A stretch of DNA of 55,228 bases. Origin: Muribaculaceae bacterium (GTDB taxonomy: Bacteria > Bacteroidota > Bacteroidia > Bacteroidales > Muribaculaceae). Shown here one piece after another: positions 49,229-55,228 of the stretch. Under the pieces are notes generated by a model. It was given only the letters and a program-made list of their open reading frames with translations, was not told the DNA's origin and searched no databases. The stretch is from the NCBI GenBank assembly GCA_017427945.1, contig JAFRRT010000019.1, positions 1 through 55,228 on the forward strand. The letters run 5' to 3'. The position numbers and the translations under genes are program-made. Position 1 is the first letter of the stretch. Each line of letters starts with the position of its first letter.

Positions 49229-49312
49229 GTCCAGGTGGCGGAATTGGTAGACGCGCTACTTTGAGGGGGTAGTGCCCAATTGGGCGTGTGAGTTCGACTC
49301 TCATCTTGGACA
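49229..49312 (+). tRNA. tRNA-Leu (anticodon GAG)
   Basis: An 84-nt class II tRNA: acceptor GTCCAGG / CTTGGAC, anticodon loop TTGAGGG on stem CTACT/GGTAG (GAG), long variable arm TGCCCAATTGGGCG, T arm GTGAGTTCGACTCTCAT, discriminator A73. CCA is not fully encoded. tRNA-Leu 3' ends are common integration targets. Confidence 0.95.
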
Positions 49313-49321
49313 CCTTTTTCG

Positions 49322-49574: not shown

Positions 49575-50558
49575 ATGGCGTATTTAGCAATTAAAGAATA
49601 TGGCAAACGTATTAATGAAATGGCCATCCGTTTTTCAAAGTATGATAACATATTCGATGGAGCAAGTTCATTAATGGAATATAATGAAATTCATTATATT
49701 TTCTCTCGATTGGCTTGTCGAGAGCTCTACGCTAATGATATCTACCCTGGCAACCAAAGAGTTGTTACTACCCTATATAATAAATTTGTTTTTTCAGAAC
49801 TGCTGAAGAAGGCGTTTCTATCTAAACCTTTTAAGAACCAAGACACAGAAATTGAATTTATTGAAAAAGGGATTGAAGATGGATATTACCTACTCTGTCA
49901 TGCACAAGAACTTTTGATGGCAATAACAGTTACAGCATATCCTGATCGCTTTAAAGAATCACGCATTAAAGAAGCCATTGCGACCCTCAAGGAGGTGACA
50001 GCATTGACAGAAGCAAATATAAGTAGATTCAATATTGCTTACTCAAATCTTGCAGCTAAAGACGCCAAGAGAATTGAAATGATGCAAGCAGAGGCCGAAG
50101 AACAAGAAAAGAAACAAGACAATAGCCCAGACAATCAGAAAAAAGACACTGTTGCAGAATGCTCTGAAATGAATCAGAATCAAGATGGCAAACAAGTGCA
50201 GCCAGCCCATCAAGTGGCAAGAAAGTACATCATCGAGAATAATGATCTTCTTCTTCAGATACATAAATTTCTTGTTGAAACAAAAGTGCTTTTATCAGAT
50301 GTGCTTTTTCCTGTTTTTCTTGACATGGCCATTAACGCAGATGCTAGCAACATCGCCCCTCAGAAGAAGTGGAAGTTTATTACCAGTCTTTGGTATGTAG
50401 CAACTTGTATAAAAGGTGATCAAAAGGCCTGGGCAAGGGATATTTGCAAATCAATGGGGAAAAAACCTAGTGATCTAACAAAGTGCGCTGAAAAAGATCC
50501 AGGATGGCTTGATGATTTAAAAAAACTAGTGGAAAACAACAGAAAAAATCAATTTTGA
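49575..50558 (+). CDS. Unknown 327-residue AT-rich gene
   Basis: I do not recognise this protein. It has no signal peptide or membrane segment and is predicted mostly helical. An N-terminal helical part (about 1-160, with YNEIHYIFSRLACRELYAND) is joined by a charged, Gln/Lys/Glu-rich linker (about 168-205) to a second helical part (about 210-327, with KWKFITSLWYVATCIKGDQKAWARDIC). Codon use is much more AT-rich than in the chromosomal genes to the left, suggesting transfer. It has its own promoter with an inverted repeat and ends inside a tandem 10-bp array. Confidence 0.7.
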   Translation: MAYLAIKEYGKRINEMAIRFSKYDNIFDGASSLMEYNEIHYIFSRLACRELYANDIYPGNQRVVTTLYNKFVFSELLKKAFLSKPFKNQDTEIEFIEKGIEDGYYLLCHAQELLMAITVTAYPDRFKESRIKEAIATLKEVTALTEANISRFNIAYSNLAAKDAKRIEMMQAEAEEQEKKQDNSPDNQKKDTVAECSEMNQNQDGKQVQPAHQVARKYIIENNDLLLQIHKFLVETKVLLSDVLFPVFLDMAINADASNIAPQKKWKFITSLWYVATCIKGDQKAWARDICKSMGKKPSDLTKCAEKDPGWLDDLKKLVENNRKNQF

Positions 50559-50605
50559 CCAGAAAAGCCAGAAAAGACCAGAAAAGACCAGAAAAGACCA
50601 GAAAA
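50557..50605. repeat. Tandem array of five GACCAGAAAA units
   Basis: GACCAGAAAA at 50557, GCCAGAAAA (one base short) at 50567, then exact copies at 50576, 50586 and 50596. The array begins on the stop codon of the upstream gene. Single related copies occur near 50698 and 52771. Confidence 0.85.
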
Positions 50606-50832
50606 ATAATCAAGTCAAAATACATTTAATTCGTTGAAATACAACGAATAAACATGTGTTAGCTTTTGTGATTTTTTCTTCAAATACCAGAGAATTACCA
50701 GACAAAACTGGCAGTAACTTTGCAATGTCCGAACGATGATGGACTGGCGCAAAGGTTCTGCGACCGAGAGCTGGATTCGGGAGGGCGTATAACACACATG
50801 AGCGAGAACCTGCTCTCTAATACTTTTTTAAT
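50606..50832 (+). promoter_or_regulatory. Promoter and about 100-nt leader of the HTH gene
   Basis: The palindrome CCAG-ACAAAA-CTGG (50698-50711) sits directly upstream of the -7 box TAACTTTG (50715-50722). Transcription from about 50729 gives a GC-rich leader of about 100 nt, unusual in this AT-rich segment. Within it CTGGCGCAAAGG (50744-50755) also occurs in the hairpin region at 53108-53119. The leader may be structured. Confidence 0.5.
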
Positions 50833-51150
50833 ATGTCTAATCCATATTCTTCAATTAGTGACATCTTGGCATCAGATGCCAATGTCATCCTTCAAGTTTC
50901 AGCAAAGGACTTGAAAGAGTTCGCGCAGAACATTCTTATCGGCGCAAAGTCAGTCGCTATGATCGAAGCAGAAGCCGCTGCGACGAGCGACCAGTTATTA
51001 ACCATTGACGAGGCATCAGAGTTGCTGTCCGTTTCCAAGATGACGCTCTACCGTTGGGACCAGAACGGCATCCTCAAGAAGGTAGAGATTGGCGGCAAGC
51101 GTCGCTACCGCAAGAGCGACATCGAACGTCTCGTCGGATGTAAAATCTAA
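50833..51150 (+). CDS. Excisionase-type helix-turn-helix protein
   Basis: 105 residues. The C-terminal half (about 55-105) is a MerR-like HTH_17 DNA-binding domain: LTIDEASELLSVSKMTLYRW followed by the wing GGKRRYRKSDIERLV. Proteins of this size and kind in Bacteroidales elements act as excisionases or transcription regulators. The N-terminal half is a helical region without known motifs. It is first in a tight operon with the 28-codon ORF, the initiator and the ATPase. The 10-bp and palindromic repeats upstream could be its binding sites (inference). Confidence 0.85.
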   Translation: MSNPYSSISDILASDANVILQVSAKDLKEFAQNILIGAKSVAMIEAEAAATSDQLLTIDEASELLSVSKMTLYRWDQNGILKKVEIGGKRRYRKSDIERLVGCKI

Positions 51151-51156
51151 TCTATC

Positions 51157-51243
51157 ATGGAAAACACATCGTATTCGAAAGGCAAGTTCAGCCTCCTTGT
51201 GGAGGCTGAGTTGCCGGTCGACGAATTTCTAAAGAGATTGTAA
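51157..51243 (+). CDS. Short ORF of 28 codons between HTH and initiator genes
   Basis: An ATG-initiated frame (MENTSYSKGKFSLL...) that fills the gap: it begins 6 bp after the HTH stop and ends 2 bp before the initiator ATG. That packing suggests translation, either as a microprotein or for coupling. There is no known family, and coding is not proven. Confidence 0.45.
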   Translation: MENTSYSKGKFSLLVEAELPVDEFLKRL

Positions 51244-51245
51244 CT

Positions 51246-51986
51246 ATGCACGACAAGGGGTTTACAATGGTTCCAAACGCCATCATCCGTTCGTCAGTAC
51301 TTAGCATTGCTGAGAAAGCGGTGTGGAACTACATTGCTTCCATGCCTGACGGGTATAGGTATTCGATTCGTTCAGCGTGTAAGACGCTGCACATCGGCGA
51401 TAAGATTTGGCGCCGTGCCATAATCAAACTTGAGAAATTAGGTTTGATATCCGTAAGGCATGTACTTGGGAGGGCGACAGTTTATGAAGCCTCAAAAGAT
51501 GCCCTCGGATGGAATGCACCCCCTAGTCAAATGACCAGCGGTTTAAATGACACCCCTAGTCAATTAACCAGCGGTTCAAACGACACCCCTAGTCAATTAA
51601 CCACACCACCCCTGGTCAATGAGCAGCAGGTTACACATTATAATAAGAAAAAACTATTAAATAACAACGTCGACGACGATACATGTGCACACATGAGAGA
51701 AAAACTTGAACATGAAGTGATGATTGACGGCAACATTGAGCTTGCATGTAAGAGTTGCGGCATTACGCAGGCACAATACATGGAACTCGCTACAGCAATT
51801 ATCGCAGAATGGAAATTCAAAGATCTTCCAGATAGTGAGTGGACAAAGAACCACTTCATATCTGTGCTTCGATACAAAGTTAACGGCCTAAAAAATTACA
51901 ATCATGAAAAAGATACTTCAAAAAACTCTGCAACAACAAGTAACCCGCTTTCAAATGCAACCGTCCACACCGCCAACATCGGTTGA
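51246..51986 (+). CDS. Winged-helix replication initiator-like protein (lambda O-like arrangement)
   Basis: 246 residues. The N-terminal 90 residues are a winged-helix (HTH_36-like) domain: FTMVPNAIIRSSVLSIAEKA, YSIRSACKTLHIGDKIWRRA and LEKLGLISVRH. A Ser/Thr/Pro-rich linker with three repeats (PSQMTSG, PSQLTSG, PSQLTTP) leads to a C-terminal helical domain (YMELATAIIAEWKF, WTKNHFISVLRYK). This layout matches phage and plasmid initiators whose C-terminus recruits a helicase loader. The linker DNA contains four iteron-like repeats plus an AT-rich stretch. The next gene overlaps its end by 83 bp and encodes a DnaC-like ATPase. Initiator function is inference. Confidence 0.7.
   Translation: MHDKGFTMVPNAIIRSSVLSIAEKAVWNYIASMPDGYRYSIRSACKTLHIGDKIWRRAIIKLEKLGLISVRHVLGRATVYEASKDALGWNAPPSQMTSGLNDTPSQLTSGSNDTPSQLTTPPLVNEQQVTHYNKKKLLNNNVDDDTCAHMREKLEHEVMIDGNIELACKSCGITQAQYMELATAIIAEWKFKDLPDSEWTKNHFISVLRYKVNGLKNYNHEKDTSKNSATTSNPLSNATVHTANIG
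51520..51670. repeat. Four iteron-like repeats plus AT-rich stretch (candidate replication origin)
   Basis: CCCCTAGTCAAATGACCA (51520-51537), CCCCTAGTCAATTAACCA (51553-51570 and 51586-51603) and the degenerate CCCCTGGTCAATGAGCA (51609-51625). The first three are 33 bp apart; the fourth is 23 bp further, in a different codon phase. An AT-rich tract (about 51633-51668) follows. Iterons then an AT-rich DUE inside an initiator gene is the design of the lambda origin. Confidence 0.55.
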
Positions 51987-52599
51987 TTGGGCCAAAGAAA
52001 TGGCCTACTTCCGAGCAGCTTTTCTTAAGGTCGAACCACGTTTTGACCCGAAACTGGCTGATAGGAACATCTTAAACTCACTCTTTGCCTGGGTATGGAA
52101 GCTCGATGAGTACAACAAGCTCAAGTTGGATTACAACAAGGGGTTTTGCTTCTATGGAGATCTCGGCTTAGGCAAGAGTATGACCCTGCAAGCTCTACGC
52201 CAATACCGGAATGGCCTAGTTTCTCGACACGAGAGTAAGAGAGAAGATTTCCGTATGAAGGGAACTTGGCTGAAGGCTGCAAGTGAATTGGCGAACATCT
52301 TTTCAGTTGATGGGCAGCCAGCTCTTATAAAGTACACAACCGACGAAATCAACCTTATCATCGATGAGTTGGGAAGAGAGCCCAGACCTGCGAAATATTT
52401 CGGTACAGAACTGAATGTCATCCAGTTTGTACTTCAGTTGCGCTATGATCACAGGCGTGATAGTGTTACCCATATCACCACCAATCTTAAACTCGAAGAC
52501 ATTGCGCAGAAATACGGTGCATATATTGCTGACCGTTGCTTGGAGATGTTCAACTTTATCGAGTTCAAGGGCGCTAGTCTCCGATCAAAAATACACTGA
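51904..52599 (+). CDS. DnaC-like AAA+ ATPase (helicase loader-like)
   Basis: 231 residues from ATG 51904 (an ATG at 51955 is also possible). Walker A GDLGLGKS is at 85-92, Walker B LIIDE at 151-155, sensor-1 ITTN near 196 and the Arg-finger-like IADR near 215, the order of DnaC/IstB-type AAA+ proteins. There is no IS21 transposase beside it, so a replicative helicase loader fits better than IstB. The overlap with the initiator gene suggests translational coupling. Confidence 0.8.
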   Translation: MKKILQKTLQQQVTRFQMQPSTPPTSVDWAKEMAYFRAAFLKVEPRFDPKLADRNILNSLFAWVWKLDEYNKLKLDYNKGFCFYGDLGLGKSMTLQALRQYRNGLVSRHESKREDFRMKGTWLKAASELANIFSVDGQPALIKYTTDEINLIIDELGREPRPAKYFGTELNVIQFVLQLRYDHRRDSVTHITTNLKLEDIAQKYGAYIADRCLEMFNFIEFKGASLRSKIH

Positions 52600-52769
52600 T
52601 ATGTCTAACCAACTGACATCGGCACGTTTTTCTACTACTGTCAGCGATTTGGTGTGGTATGAGATGGTTTATATTGAAGCTGTTATGGAACCTTCCGCTG
52701 GCGTTTTCGGACGGCAGCGGAAGGTCGTTTTTGGTTGCGACTTTTTGTGAGTACGTGACAAAAAATAGC

Positions 52770-53290
52770 CAGAAAATTAACATTTGAGGGTGGTCTCAAA
52801 AGTGGCCGTAAAACCTGTATTCATCGGGGTTCTTTCAGAAAATAAATTGTTAAAATGCACGTTTTTTTACGATTTGTAAAGGATTGAAAAACTCAAATAC
52901 TTGATTATCAAGCATTAAAGGGTTGAAAAGGGAATTTTTTCCCTTTGTCTCTCTCTAAGGAGCCCCCTACCGCCCTGCGGGGCGCTTCTGAAAATGGCCG
53001 TCAAAAAAGCGCTATATGCAGGGCGAATGTGCGGTAATGTCGCTTAGGTGCATAGATGAAATCGGGCGACAGTGCGGTTTCATCCATGCCCTGGGGACAA
53101 ATTCGGCCTGGCGCAAAGGCCGAAGCATAGCGGAATGCCCTTTGCCCTGGCATTTTCGGCATTTATGTTGTTCGGTGAGACGGTTTCAACGAATGCTGTT
53201 ACCGCTTTTCTCCGTGGTGATAACAGCCACTCTCAAATGGTTACGTCTTGCTGATGCATTGTGTTGCCTGCTGGGACTTCATGAATGATT
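52770..53290 (+). ncRNA. Candidate structured RNA, copy A
   Basis: There is no credible protein gene here. Conserved with copy B are: a hairpin CTTG-ATTAT-CAAG (52900-52912); a hairpin AAAGGGAA / TTCCCTTT with loop TTTT (52927-52946); and CGCCCTGC (52971-52978) complementary to GCAGGGCG (53018-53025), closing over an inner GCGCTT/AAGCGC pair. Further stems are 53051-53088 (GATGAAA/TTTCATC), 53103-53123 (TCGGCCT/AGGCCGA) and 53195-53227 (GCTGTTA/TAACAGC). The strand is assumed from the operon direction; exact ends are unknown. Confidence 0.5.
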
Positions 53291-53294
53291 AAGC

Positions 53295-54900
53295 GGAAAA
53301 TTTTAACATTTTGGTTTCCTTCTTTAGAATGCCGTAAAAATTCCTATATCAGCAAGTTAGACTATAGTCTTACGGACGAGAATTTGTTAAAATCACATTT
53401 TTTCCGCACTTCAAAATAAATTTCCGCTGATAATCAGCGGATTAAAGGTTGAAAAGGAAATTTTTTCCTTTTGTCTCTGCCACAGGACCCCCCAACCGCC
53501 CTGCGGAGCGTGTTACAAACTCGCTTTCATTAAAAGCGCTATATGCAGGGCGATTATGGCATTGTGCGGTGATGATGCTGACGTGCGTGAGCGCATCCGA
53601 TACGCAGTATCGGTTGCGCTTATGCTCGTCAATACCGCTGATTTCTGTGCGACAACATCGTGCCTTGAACTTGTTCCAGGCTGGATGTTGTGTTCTGGCG
53701 ATGGCGACGGGCGGTGAAGCGCAGGCAAGGGAGTGCAGAATGGCGACAGAGGCAGGAGGGTGGCTGCGCCCGACACTTGCTCATAAGGCATAGCTCAAGC
53801 AAGCTTGGCTCTGCCCTTATTTCACTGCGTGTGTGCCCAAGGCTCACAGCACCGATACCCCTGAGCGCAGCGAAAACAGCGGGGCGCGGAGGGAATGAAG
53901 TGGAGGCACAAGATGAGTGGAGTCATCGTGAGTGCCAGGCGGAATGCAGGCGTTGCGGGGCAATCTCCGATTGAGCATCGGGCTTGCGTAACGTCAGGAT
54001 CGGGTTGAGGACGGAGGACGAGCCCGATACCAGTGCAGCGAGCCGGGTGCGCACCCGCACCCGCCGTCAGCAGACCGCCTTGAACTGAAGGTGTTGCACT
54101 GTCGATGACGCAGCGAAACGCAGTGCGGAACGGGAATGACCGCAGCAGCCGGCTGTATGGGGTGTCGGCGCGGTCAGTGAGCTTGACCAGGCACTCTCCA
54201 GCCGATAAGTCAGTCATTCGGAGCGGACGCAGACGGAGCGGAACGGCCCATCGCCATCGGGGCCTGGGGTGGGCCAATCGCTGCAGGCGATGAAAAGATT
54301 CACTTAATTGCCGAAGGCTTGACCTTGGGATCGATGACCATGCCGCAGGCTGCACCGACGGCGACCGAGCAAAGTGAGGTTTGCCGACGGTATGGGGCTT
54401 GCCTCCTGGAGCCTTAGCCGACGTGCCAGGATGGACGTAGTGGACGAGTGTGCCATGGGGCTGGCAGCATCGATACCTCCGAGCGTAGCGAGAACGCTGG
54501 GCTTGATTGAGGAGCGTGCATCAAATCGAGCGTAGCGAGACCTGATGCGTCAGCGACGAAACGAGCCGTGCGTGTGAGGTCTCGATGCGGACAGACAGCC
54601 CGATAAGGCACTCTTGGTAACGGAGTGATCCCGACACGGCGGTATCAGCGGCATCGCCATCGATGAGCGGTGGGAAGAGGGCGATCTCCGCCTGGCGAAG
54701 TCGCCCAGCGGCATGAGGCTGTAACGGAGCAGCTCAATCCAGCCAGCGCAGCCGGCTGGTTGAAGTGCGGAGCGTGAAGCAGCCGAATACAACCCAGTGA
54801 CCACAGCGAATGTAATCCCCAGGTCAATAACGTCAAGAAAAGGGCATTTAATCAAGGCGCATCGCCAGCCGTGGCTGAGGTTGCGCCTTGTGGAAAAACG
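53295..54900 (+). ncRNA. Candidate large structured RNA, copy B with 1.3-kb hairpin-rich extension
   Basis: The first 260 bases are homologous to copy A: hairpin CCGCTG-ATAAT-CAGCGG (53424-53440), a 9-bp hairpin AAAAGGAAA / TTTCCTTTT (53452-53472), and CGCCCTGC (53497-53504) against GCAGGGCG (53545-53552). The rest is GC-rich and dense with stems: 53579-53631 (25 positions, 23 paired, loop GCA), 53652-53691, 53783-53820, 53999-54028, 54044-54057 and 54853-54890. Open frames here are short, occur on both strands and lack protein-like composition. Strand and ends are inferred. Confidence 0.5.
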
Positions 54901-54986
54901 CACTTCCTTTAGTCTCAGGGTGAATAATCCTATCATGAAAAGCAAATTATTTTTTCCTCTTTTAGTGACTTACGATGAAAGCGTTG

Positions 54987-54994
54987 TATCTTTG
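54987..54994 (+). promoter_or_regulatory. -7 box of the gene at the right edge
   Basis: TATCTTTG, 29 bp before the ATG at 55023. AAGAGGACATG provides a purine-rich ribosome site. Confidence 0.55.
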
Positions 54995-55022
54995 CCATTG
55001 TAATCATCAATCAAAAGAGGAC

Positions 55023-55228
55023 ATGAATATGGTAGTCTTAATGTGGAACCCCGCGATATCGTCTTATACCATGAATGATTATTTGGACGGTATGGAACAT
55101 TTCGGTCAATATGGGCTGAATTGGAGCGTGTGGGAGTATGAGAAAGTCCAAAAGTACGATCGTTTCGTCATGGTTAAGGTTGGCGAAGGGCGAACCGGAA
55201 TTGTGATGAGTGGCATGATAATGTCTGA
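55023..55228 (+). CDS. Hypothetical protein, N-terminal part only (truncated by window end)
   Basis: The frame is open from ATG 55023 to the window end (68 codons). It begins MNMVVLMWNPAISSYTMNDY and continues with NWSVWEYE, YDRFVMVKVGEG and TGIVMSGMI. I recall similar uncharacterised Bacteroidales proteins. The D-R-F-V-M-V-KVG...GIV-SG pattern is reminiscent of PUA-like EVE domains, which bind modified bases, but this is a weak resemblance. It has a normal Bacteroidota promoter. Confidence 0.65.
   Translation, partial: MNMVVLMWNPAISSYTMNDYLDGMEHFGQYGLNWSVWEYEKVQKYDRFVMVKVGEGRTGIVMSGMIMS

What the first reader, a model, noticed from the sequence alone, without database searches (positions are those of the whole stretch)
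53380..54900. A 1.5-kb hairpin-dense, gene-free region: possible giant ornate RNA
After copy B the sequence has no believable ORF but many strong nested stems. 53579-53631 is a hairpin of 25 positions with 23 paired (two G-T) and loop GCA. 53652-53691 is a three-segment stem. 53783-53820 is about 16 pairs with bulges. 53999-54028, 54044-54057 and 54853-54890 (9-bp outer stem plus an inner AGCC/GGCT stem) follow. Known giant phage/element RNAs such as GOLLD and ROOL are of comparable size and occur in elements near tRNA genes; this one lies in a tRNA-adjacent element. Identity with those families is not claimed.
Basis: partly seen in the sequence, partly recalled or inferred. Interest (0 to 1): 0.85.

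Follow-up and report, generated by a model that had tools for sequence, protein, structure and literature searches.

The report
Giant phage-linked structured RNA family
The gene-free stretch carries the signature of a very large folded RNA, about 0.9 to 1.5 thousand bases long, whose relatives sit beside tRNA genes and beside tail genes of gut-bacterial viruses; it matched no catalogued RNA family here, and it is not yet shown that it is made or what it does.

Summary
Window 53360-54892 (+ strand) looks like the gene of a large structured RNA. On 14 aligned relatives, 61 of 202 consensus pairs keep pairing through changes on both sides, against 30.7 in shuffles and 9-20 when partners are slid. 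The fold is a 5' domain (53423-53691), a rod whose strands lie up to about 530 nt apart (53699-54259), and a second, more weakly supported rod (54339-54784). G-U outnumbers A-C (259 to 71 cells), pointing to the + strand.

The core of the 5' unit occurs in 59 of 101 genomes of the genus, in two recurrent settings: downstream of tRNA genes, in arrays of up to four, often after replication genes; and in phages or prophages, divergent from the tape-measure gene. The ORFs are not conserved. Rfam finds nothing relevant.

Corrections: the RNA begins inside 'copy B'; the 53783-53820 stem is an insert missing from most relatives; single-sequence folding energy is weak evidence.

It works most like GOLLD/ROOL but is not a member by Rfam. 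Transcription and function are untested.

The parts
49229..49314 (+). tRNA-Leu(gag), the tRNA gene upstream of the element
   Evidence: ARAGORN, Rfam; same tRNA upstream of relatives L035, L046, L047, L049, L095
49575..50558 (+). 327-aa protein of unknown family, first gene after the tRNA
   Evidence: no Pfam, NCBIfam, PHROG or PADLOC match; homologues, some only 24-39% identical, after tRNA-Leu/Arg/Lys in relatives
50833..51150 (+). helix-turn-helix protein, excisionase-like
   Evidence: HTH_17 1.3e-13; excisionase PHROGs
51246..51986 (+). replication-initiator-like protein
   Evidence: weak PHROG matches (best 1.4e-5) to DnaD-like loader and replication initiation proteins
51904..52599 (+). 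DnaC-like helicase loader
   Evidence: phrog_3277 5.8e-15
52822..53128 (+). copy A: first 300-nt structured unit of the array
   Evidence: nhmmer 245.5 bits; folding z -8.1 for 52901-53100; R1 111 bits
53360..53660 (+). copy B: second unit, 5' domain of the large RNA
   Evidence: nhmmer 264.4 bits; R1 139.5 bits
53579..53631 (+). 22-25 bp hairpin of the 5' domain
   Evidence: 11 of 22 pairs with both-side change
53652..53691 (+). second hairpin of the 5' domain
   Evidence: 9 of 16 pairs with both-side change
53699..54259 (+). rod 1: nested helices whose two strands lie up to about 530 nt apart, outermost 53699-53715/54243-54259, tip 53992-54035
   Evidence: outermost helix 2 of 15 pairs both-changed, inner helix 13 7 of 9
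53763..53831 (+). 69-bp hairpin insert inside a strand of rod 1, not part of the conserved fold
54276..54784 (+). rod 2 region (54417-54432/54628-54643, tip 54514-54554, with flanking hairpins)
   Evidence: alifold z -7.5, 27 of 166 pairs both-changed against 15 +- 3.8
54853..54890 (+). 3'-end hairpin; homology to several relatives stops at 54891/54892
   Evidence: I3; boundaries
54975..55228 (+). start of a 352-aa protein gene of unknown family, next after the RNA, cut by the contig end
   Evidence: tblastn to L040:1745-2803, 97.6%; no Pfam, NCBIfam, PHROG or PADLOC match of that protein

Best explanation
The stretch is a gene for a large, phage-linked structured RNA, read on the + strand. 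SHOWN: (1) a 300-nt 5' unit, present twice here, is a repeated family with covarying helices. (2) The last unit is followed by a rod closed by helices whose strands lie about 500 nt apart, then by a second, more weakly supported rod. (3) The + strand is the better structured one, by the G-U against A-C excess. (4) Relatives sit downstream of tRNA genes, often after small replication modules, and in prophages or phages divergent from the tape-measure gene. (5) The ORFs tested are not conserved. INFERRED: (6) it is transcribed, from its own promoter in phages and perhaps by read-through from the tRNA in the islands. (7) The tRNA-adjacent copies belong to small satellite-like or decayed elements that share the RNA with temperate phages. 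(8) It acts as RNA, as a self-folding scaffold or assembly made during phage or satellite growth, the way GOLLD and ROOL may. I put about 0.9 on a structured RNA, 0.6 on phage/satellite origin and 0.3 on a GOLLD/ROOL-like assembly.
For: (14 rows): 93.6% of cells paired against 87.5 +- 0.3 shuffled and 31-40% slid; 61 both-changed pairs against 30.7 +- 3.3 (0 of 500 shuffles) and 9-20 slid; covariation score 0.206 against 0.108. (15 sequences under 95% identical): alifold z -22.4 against 40 column shuffles; 81 of 245 pairs both-changed against 32 +- 4.8 shuffled and 21-34 slid; G-U 259, A-C 71. (7 of 10 aligned rows of a second subtype): z -25.2 against 24 column shuffles, 46 of 442 pairs against 18 +- 4.8, G-U 212, A-C 43. 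(tail, 13 sequences): z -7.5; core in 59 of 101 genus genomes; unit in 43 of 44 pattern hits; 21 of those 44 loci have a tRNA upstream on the same strand, and 10 have a tape-measure gene; unit in 6 of 6 viral contigs; unit on the minus strand upstream of the tape-measure gene in 21 of 34 loci. ORFs broken.
Against: No transcript evidence. Single-sequence folding energy is not decisive. The best uninterrupted long-range stem beats all of its 12 shuffles in only 6 of 30 sequences, and not in the window. In the L084 subtype the pairs spanning more than 150 nt are not more covarying than in refolded shuffles: 3 of 129 both-changed against 5.0 +- 2.7. In one search one of five measures is weaker (further pair types 117 against 109.3 +- 3.9; 16 of 500 shuffles as high), and the two helices nearest the rod tip (12 and 14 pairs) have no both-side change. 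Two relatives with a unit (L068, L077) do not align over rod 1. In the distant phages only the 5' unit is shown. In the L053 group an ORF (g158) in the RNA region has 41-48% identical relatives, so a gene there is not excluded. No promoter or terminator was demonstrated (the scan tool was not run). No integrase was recognised among the window's island genes, and no att-like repeat of 13 bp or more in 20 tRNA loci. 42 of 101 genus genomes lack the core at the threshold, and 13 of 34 tape-measure loci lack the unit.
Confidence: 0.75

Rival explanations
1. A DNA element: the repeated, hairpin-rich unit is a replication origin or single-strand initiation site of the phages and islands, folding as single-stranded DNA.
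For: In many islands the unit lies directly after DnaC-like loader or primase/helicase genes and is repeated 1-4 times. G-T pairs are also tolerated in folded DNA, so the G-U excess does not strictly exclude it.
Against: Covarying helices with strands about 500 nt apart are unusual for an origin (inference); the tRNA-Ala arrays have no room for a replication gene between tRNA and units; the phage copy sits by the tape-measure gene.
Confidence: 0.13
2. An antisense or regulatory RNA controlling the phage tail operon; the island copies are captured decoys.
For: The unit is divergent from the tape-measure gene, 22-190 nt from its start in 16 of the 21 loci with a hit.
Against: It points away from the tape-measure gene, so it does not overlap its message; 5 of the 21 loci have it 1.1-2.2 kb away; arrays are kept beside tRNA genes in loci with no tape-measure hit. 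Regulation would not need some 200 conserved pairs (inference).
Confidence: 0.1
3. A divergent member of GOLLD or ROOL that Rfam's models miss.
For: Similar size, phage and tRNA setting (passages read).
Against: No match at gathering in the window or in 15 loci, nor at E<=5 in the window stretch, L084 or L058.
Confidence: 0.07
4. GC-rich junk or a decayed protein gene with chance hairpins.
For: Most 200-nt windows over 53601-54900 have ordinary folding z; the tail is a mosaic of modules.
Against: Covariation against shuffled, refolded and slid controls; ORFs not conserved.
Confidence: 0.03

Closest known systems
ROOL RNA (rumen-originating, ornate, large)
   Different: No Rfam match; the unit recurs in tandem arrays; divergent from a tape-measure gene in Bacteroidales phages; long rods. 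Oligomerisation unknown here.
[quoted passage not shown]
   Same: Many members exceed 800 nt; phage or prophage; one conserved and one less conserved region; env-38 lies downstream of a tRNA (passages of PMC12286853).
   Different: No Rfam match; here the 5' unit is the widely shared part, whereas GOLLD's 3' region is conserved.
Abundant non-coding RNAs of phage ICP1 and its PLE satellites
   Same: An ORF-less stretch giving an about 800-nt RNA in a phage; phage and satellite both make abundant non-coding RNA (passages of PMC7567579).
   Different: Different host group (Vibrio); no sequence comparison was made.
OLE and HEARO RNAs
   Same: Large structured bacterial RNAs (OLE; HEARO: recalled).
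   Different: No Rfam match at gathering or at E<=5.

Membership tests
GOLLD | match to its Rfam covariance model | tested here: not met
GOLLD | conserved 3' region with less conserved 5' region | tested here: not met
   here the 5' unit is the widely shared part
GOLLD | phage or prophage setting, often near tRNA genes | tested here: met
GOLLD | 14-mer RNA cage | not testable with these tools
   needs cryo-EM or native gels
ROOL | match to its Rfam covariance model | tested here: not met
ROOL | phage or prophage setting, often near tRNA islands | tested here: met
   an 18-tRNA cluster lies 1.3 kb after the RNA in L033, the only such cluster seen
ROOL | octameric RNA cage | not testable with these tools
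   needs experiment
OLE / HEARO | Rfam model match | tested here: not met
large structured non-coding RNA (the kind) | many helices supported by covariation over more than 600 nt | tested here: met
   for a second subtype, where the long-range pairs alone are not above shuffles
large structured non-coding RNA (the kind) | transcription as a long stable RNA | not testable with these tools
   no RNA-seq at hand
tRNA-integrated phage satellite | integrase and att repeats at the tRNA | tested here: not met
   no integrase recognised among the window's island genes; no repeat of 13 bp or more in 20 loci, whose right ends may be cut by contig or locus ends
tRNA-integrated phage satellite | own replication module and excisionase-like regulator | tested here: met
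   the tRNA-Ala arrays lack it

The most novel reading that the evidence does not exclude
A new family of giant phage RNA, unrelated to GOLLD and ROOL, that temperate Bacteroidales siphophages carry next to the tape-measure gene and that tRNA-linked satellites carry in tandem arrays. It self-assembles into a large RNA particle used in phage growth or in satellite-helper conflict.
Probability: 0.28. Interest if true: 0.92.

Novelty: new variant of a known kind. Interest (0 to 1): 0.8.

Why it matters
Giant ornate RNAs are few, and GOLLD and ROOL have no known function although both form RNA-only cages (PMC12286853, passages). A further family without a detectable relationship to them, in the same kind of genetic setting and now tied to one phage operon position and to tRNA-linked elements, would suggest that phages arrived at large RNAs more than once. 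It also gives two concrete handles on function: a fixed gene neighbour, and natural copies outside phages.

Tried and rejected
Protein-coding origin: rejected. Rfam families: at gathering only tRNAs; at E<=5 only weak eukaryotic, archaeal or viral look-alikes below their cut-offs. Known phages and plasmids: no DNA match. The L053 tape-measure protein has only distant relatives in INPHARED, all 128 records below 60% identity. Single-sequence long-range stems looked striking, but with shuffles only 6 of 30 sequences (L016, L030, L084, L090, L104, L197) beat every one of 12 shuffles, two more tie, and the window does not; I do not use them as evidence. MFE z-scores: one of three control stretches (50558-51500) reached -8.0, and reverse strands score similarly, so not specific. 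The column shuffles do not keep neighbouring-base content, so their z-scores are probably too large. R1 kept only 3 base pairs, so it is mainly a sequence profile and its hits show homology, not structure. att repeats: none. Promoter motif: looked at by eye only, nothing claimed; the promoter/terminator scan was not run. The consensus pairs 53489-53493/54268-54273 have no both-side change, so they are unsupported either way. Structure prediction and fold search were not used.

Papers: listings (9 papers; 4; 0; 2; 20 listed of 573; 0); passages of PMC12286853, PMC7567579 and PMC8143477; section 3.3 of PMC8143477. No listed title or abstract start, and none of the passages read, mentions such an RNA in Bacteroidales; this covers only the held open-licence library and those searches.

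Rows dropped before counts: one search started from the 23 rows; 4 were dropped first (L068 and L077, which do not align over rod 1; L015 and L008, with deletions in it) and 4 more at 95% identity or above, leaving 15. One search left out L016 (a shorter row) as well: 14 rows. One search used 7 of the 10 aligned rows (3 near-duplicates left out) and only columns with at most 3 gaps. One search used 13 of 14 rows and was not filtered for redundancy (several rows are 93-96% identical). One search used 34 of the 44 loci, those with a usable tape-measure start; two of the 34 (L182, L183) hold 245 bases or less upstream, L181 and L195 are one contig, some others are near-identical pairs, and 5 of the 34 are contigs already found. 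Alignment A2 used 41 of the 47 cores kept.

Full report
WHAT IS IN THE WINDOW. The window is a whole contig (G000:C13, 55228 bases). Its last 6 kb run: tRNA-Leu(gag) 49229-49314; a 327-aa protein of no known family; an excisionase-like HTH protein; a replication-initiator-like protein; a DnaC-like helicase loader; then about 2.4 kb without a believable gene. That stretch holds two copies of a repeat (copies A and B) and a GC-rich part (54-63% GC in 500-base windows from 53500 on, against 42-46% from 51500 to 53749). A new gene, 352 aa in relative L040, begins near 54975 and is cut by the contig end.

CHECK OF THE OBSERVATION. The listed hairpins are in the sequence. Local folding energy against dinucleotide shuffles is extreme in copy A (z -8.1) and copy B (z -5.5, -4.1) but ordinary over most of 53601-54900 (60 control windows, mean -0.34, sd 1.09). 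Over long stretches z is -5.25 for 53360-54300, -1.1 for 53664-54300 (-2.1 with the insert left out) and -3.8 for 54301-54900; three control stretches of the window gave -0.5, -3.3 and -8.0, and reverse strands scored similarly. Energy of the single sequence therefore cannot settle the matter. The five ORFs of at least 80 aa that overlap the region are not conserved as ORFs: frame-breaking indels in 20 of 24, 8 of 17, 20 of 25, 1 of 2 and 14 of 19 aligned relatives, with no marked excess of third-position changes.

RELATIVES. A DNA search of 101 genomes found matches in 43, all of the same genus, some of them only to fragments or to the insert's hairpin. Profile searches of the fetched loci gave 47 and later 93 distinct copies of a 300-nt unit. 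The core model R1 hits 59 of 101 genomes of the genus (35 of 48 good ones), 4 of 393 of the order sample (own genome included) and 1 of 198 of the phylum sample (own genome only) (all three with stricter filters). A pattern scan of named genomes gave 44 stretches; 43 hold the unit by profile, all 43 from MAGs titled as Bacteroidales, Prevotellaceae, Muribaculaceae or Porphyromonadaceae, several titles naming rumen or other ruminant gut sites. The same pattern hit 6 IMG/VR contigs, all with the unit.

TWO SETTINGS. Setting one: downstream of tRNA genes on the same strand, in 21 of the 44 loci (Leu, Ala, Lys, Arg, Pro). Units come singly or in arrays of up to four. Between tRNA and unit there is either only a few hundred bases (the tRNA-Ala arrays) or a small replication module: HTH, initiator-like protein and DnaC loader, or HTH, DUF3987 helicase and primase. 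Setting two: prophages or phages, where the unit is divergent from a tape-measure gene (phrog_25337/28, PF10145). This holds in 10 of the 44 loci and in 5 of the 6 viral contigs; the sixth locus shows no tape-measure match in the 2.6 kb held. The remaining 13 of the 44 show neither within the DNA held (one of them has no unit). Searching IMG/VR from two tape-measure proteins, 21 of 34 usable loci have the unit at E<1e-3, always on the opposite strand, 22-190 nt from the start in 16 and 1.1-2.2 kb away in 5. Five of those 34 are contigs already known. In L053, L193 and L194 the space between the preceding larger ORFs and the tape-measure gene is about 1.0-1.2 kb. It holds small ORFs (72-158 aa); one of them in L053, g158, has 41-48% identical relatives in L054, L055, L057 and L102, and whether it is a gene or the back strand of the RNA is open. 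In L053 a diversity-generating retroelement (reverse transcriptase phrog_1423, 7.4e-44; an Avd-like protein below Pfam's cut-off) lies before it.

THE FOLD. I aligned the last unit plus what follows in 15 relatives under 95% identical. RNAalifold gives -505.7 against -298.2 +- 9.3 for 40 column shuffles (z -22.4). 81 of 245 pairs have changes on both sides, against 32 +- 4.8 in refolded shuffles and 21-34 when partners are slid. A count with another tool on a newly made alignment of 14 of them, for window 53560-54262, gives 61 of 202 pairs both-changed against 30.7 +- 3.3 (0 of 500 shuffles) and 9-20 slid, with 93.6% of cells paired against 31-40% slid; one of the five measures (further pair types, 117 against 109.3 +- 3.9) is less clear. 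The structure was derived from the same sequences, which favours 'cells paired' in the slid control; the both-side counts are the safer measure. The 5' domain has hairpins at 53423-53441, 53454-53471, 53579-53631 and 53652-53691. Rod 1 runs from 53699-53715/54243-54259 inward to a tip at 53992-54035. Support is uneven along it: 2 of 15 pairs both-changed in the outermost helix, 7 of 9 in helix 13, none in the two helices nearest the tip. Compensation in the outermost helix is visible by eye: CGATGGCG/CGCCATCG in the window, CGATGTCG/CGACATCG in L027 and L030, CGCTGTCG/CGGCAGCG in L096; in L012 and L020 it is partly broken. A second subtype (L084 and relatives, 7 rows, 1414 columns) gives z -25.2 against 24 column shuffles and 46 of 442 both-changed pairs against 18 +- 4.8; for its pairs spanning more than 150 nt alone it is 3 of 129, not above refolded shuffles (5.0 +- 2.7) though above slid partners (0-1), because those rows are close. 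The 54276-54895 part in 13 sequences gives z -7.5 and 27 of 166 against 15 +- 3.8, a weaker case. In all three sets G-U cells outnumber A-C cells (259:71, 212:43, 183:50), while slid controls range from about 0.9 to 2.2 to 1, so the window's + strand is the better folded one.

EXTENT. Several phage-type relatives match the window to about 54274 (one, L116, also carries 54307-54669); tRNA-type relatives reach about 54821 or 54892. The RNA is therefore about 0.9 kb in the shorter form and up to 1.5 kb here; 5' and 3' ends are not mapped. Pieces of the tail recur alone downstream of other tRNA genes (L043, L044, L047, L048). The window carries a 69-bp hairpin insert in one strand of rod 1, shared with two other tRNA-Leu loci.

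MECHANISM. Covariation, strand bias, lack of coding conservation, recurrent phage and tRNA settings, and tandem copies fit a phage-derived large RNA that acts as folded RNA. By analogy with GOLLD and ROOL (PMC12286853, passages read: prophage and phage, often near tRNA islands, forming RNA cages, function unknown) I think an RNA scaffold or assembly made during phage or satellite growth is the most likely function; this step is inference. The DNA-origin rival is the one to take seriously, because of the replication genes next to many island copies.

RESULTS AGAINST. The best uninterrupted long-range stem fails to beat all its shuffles in 24 of 30 sequences, the window included. In the distant phages nothing beyond the 5' unit is shown. 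Two relatives with a unit (L068, L077) do not align over rod 1. R1 is nearly a sequence model (3 pairs). No att repeats were found in 20 tRNA loci and no integrase among the window's island genes. A four-unit array in L041 has no tRNA within the 6.5 kb held upstream. No expression data exist here.

NOVELTY. No relevant Rfam family matches, and the listings of the paper searches (20 of 573 listed) show no title or abstract start about such an RNA in Bacteroidales or beside tape-measure genes. I take it as a new family of a known kind.

Noticed in passing
window 53763-53831; G000:C7:84450-84480 (L002:1501-1531); L044:14921-14951: 69-bp hairpin insert in the RNA gene; its core (CAAGCAAGCTTGGCTCTGC) recurs alone elsewhere in the genome and in the genus, like a dispersed palindromic repeat.
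   Followed up: partly
L033:4453-5968: A cluster of 18 tRNA genes, with an unusual tRNA-Ile(tat), lies 1.3 kb after the RNA in G025, next to a gene with a Phage_30_3 domain.
   Followed up: no
L033, L036, L039, L041, L023/L063, L065, L069, L079: Four-unit arrays with similar spacing in eight loci; seven lie directly after tRNA-Ala(ggc), while L041 has no tRNA within the 6.5 kb held upstream. This suggests inheritance as a set.
   Followed up: no
L043, L044, L047, L048: Fragments of the RNA's 3' part, in the tRNA's orientation, are scattered over several kb downstream of tRNA-Leu; three of the four loci show no unit in the DNA held.
   Followed up: no
L053:533-2840: A diversity-generating retroelement (Avd-like protein and reverse transcriptase) sits before the RNA region in a viral contig that also has an integrase.
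   Followed up: no
window 50558-51500: A stretch taken as a control folds far better than its shuffles (z -8.0).
   Followed up: no
L009 (G002:C288), alignment A4 columns 612-685: A different insert of 74 columns in rod 1 of one relative, perhaps another expansion.
   Followed up: no
window 50833-51150: The HTH protein also matches a PADLOC model (mads_1, E 8.3e-13), probably through the shared HTH domain.
   Followed up: no
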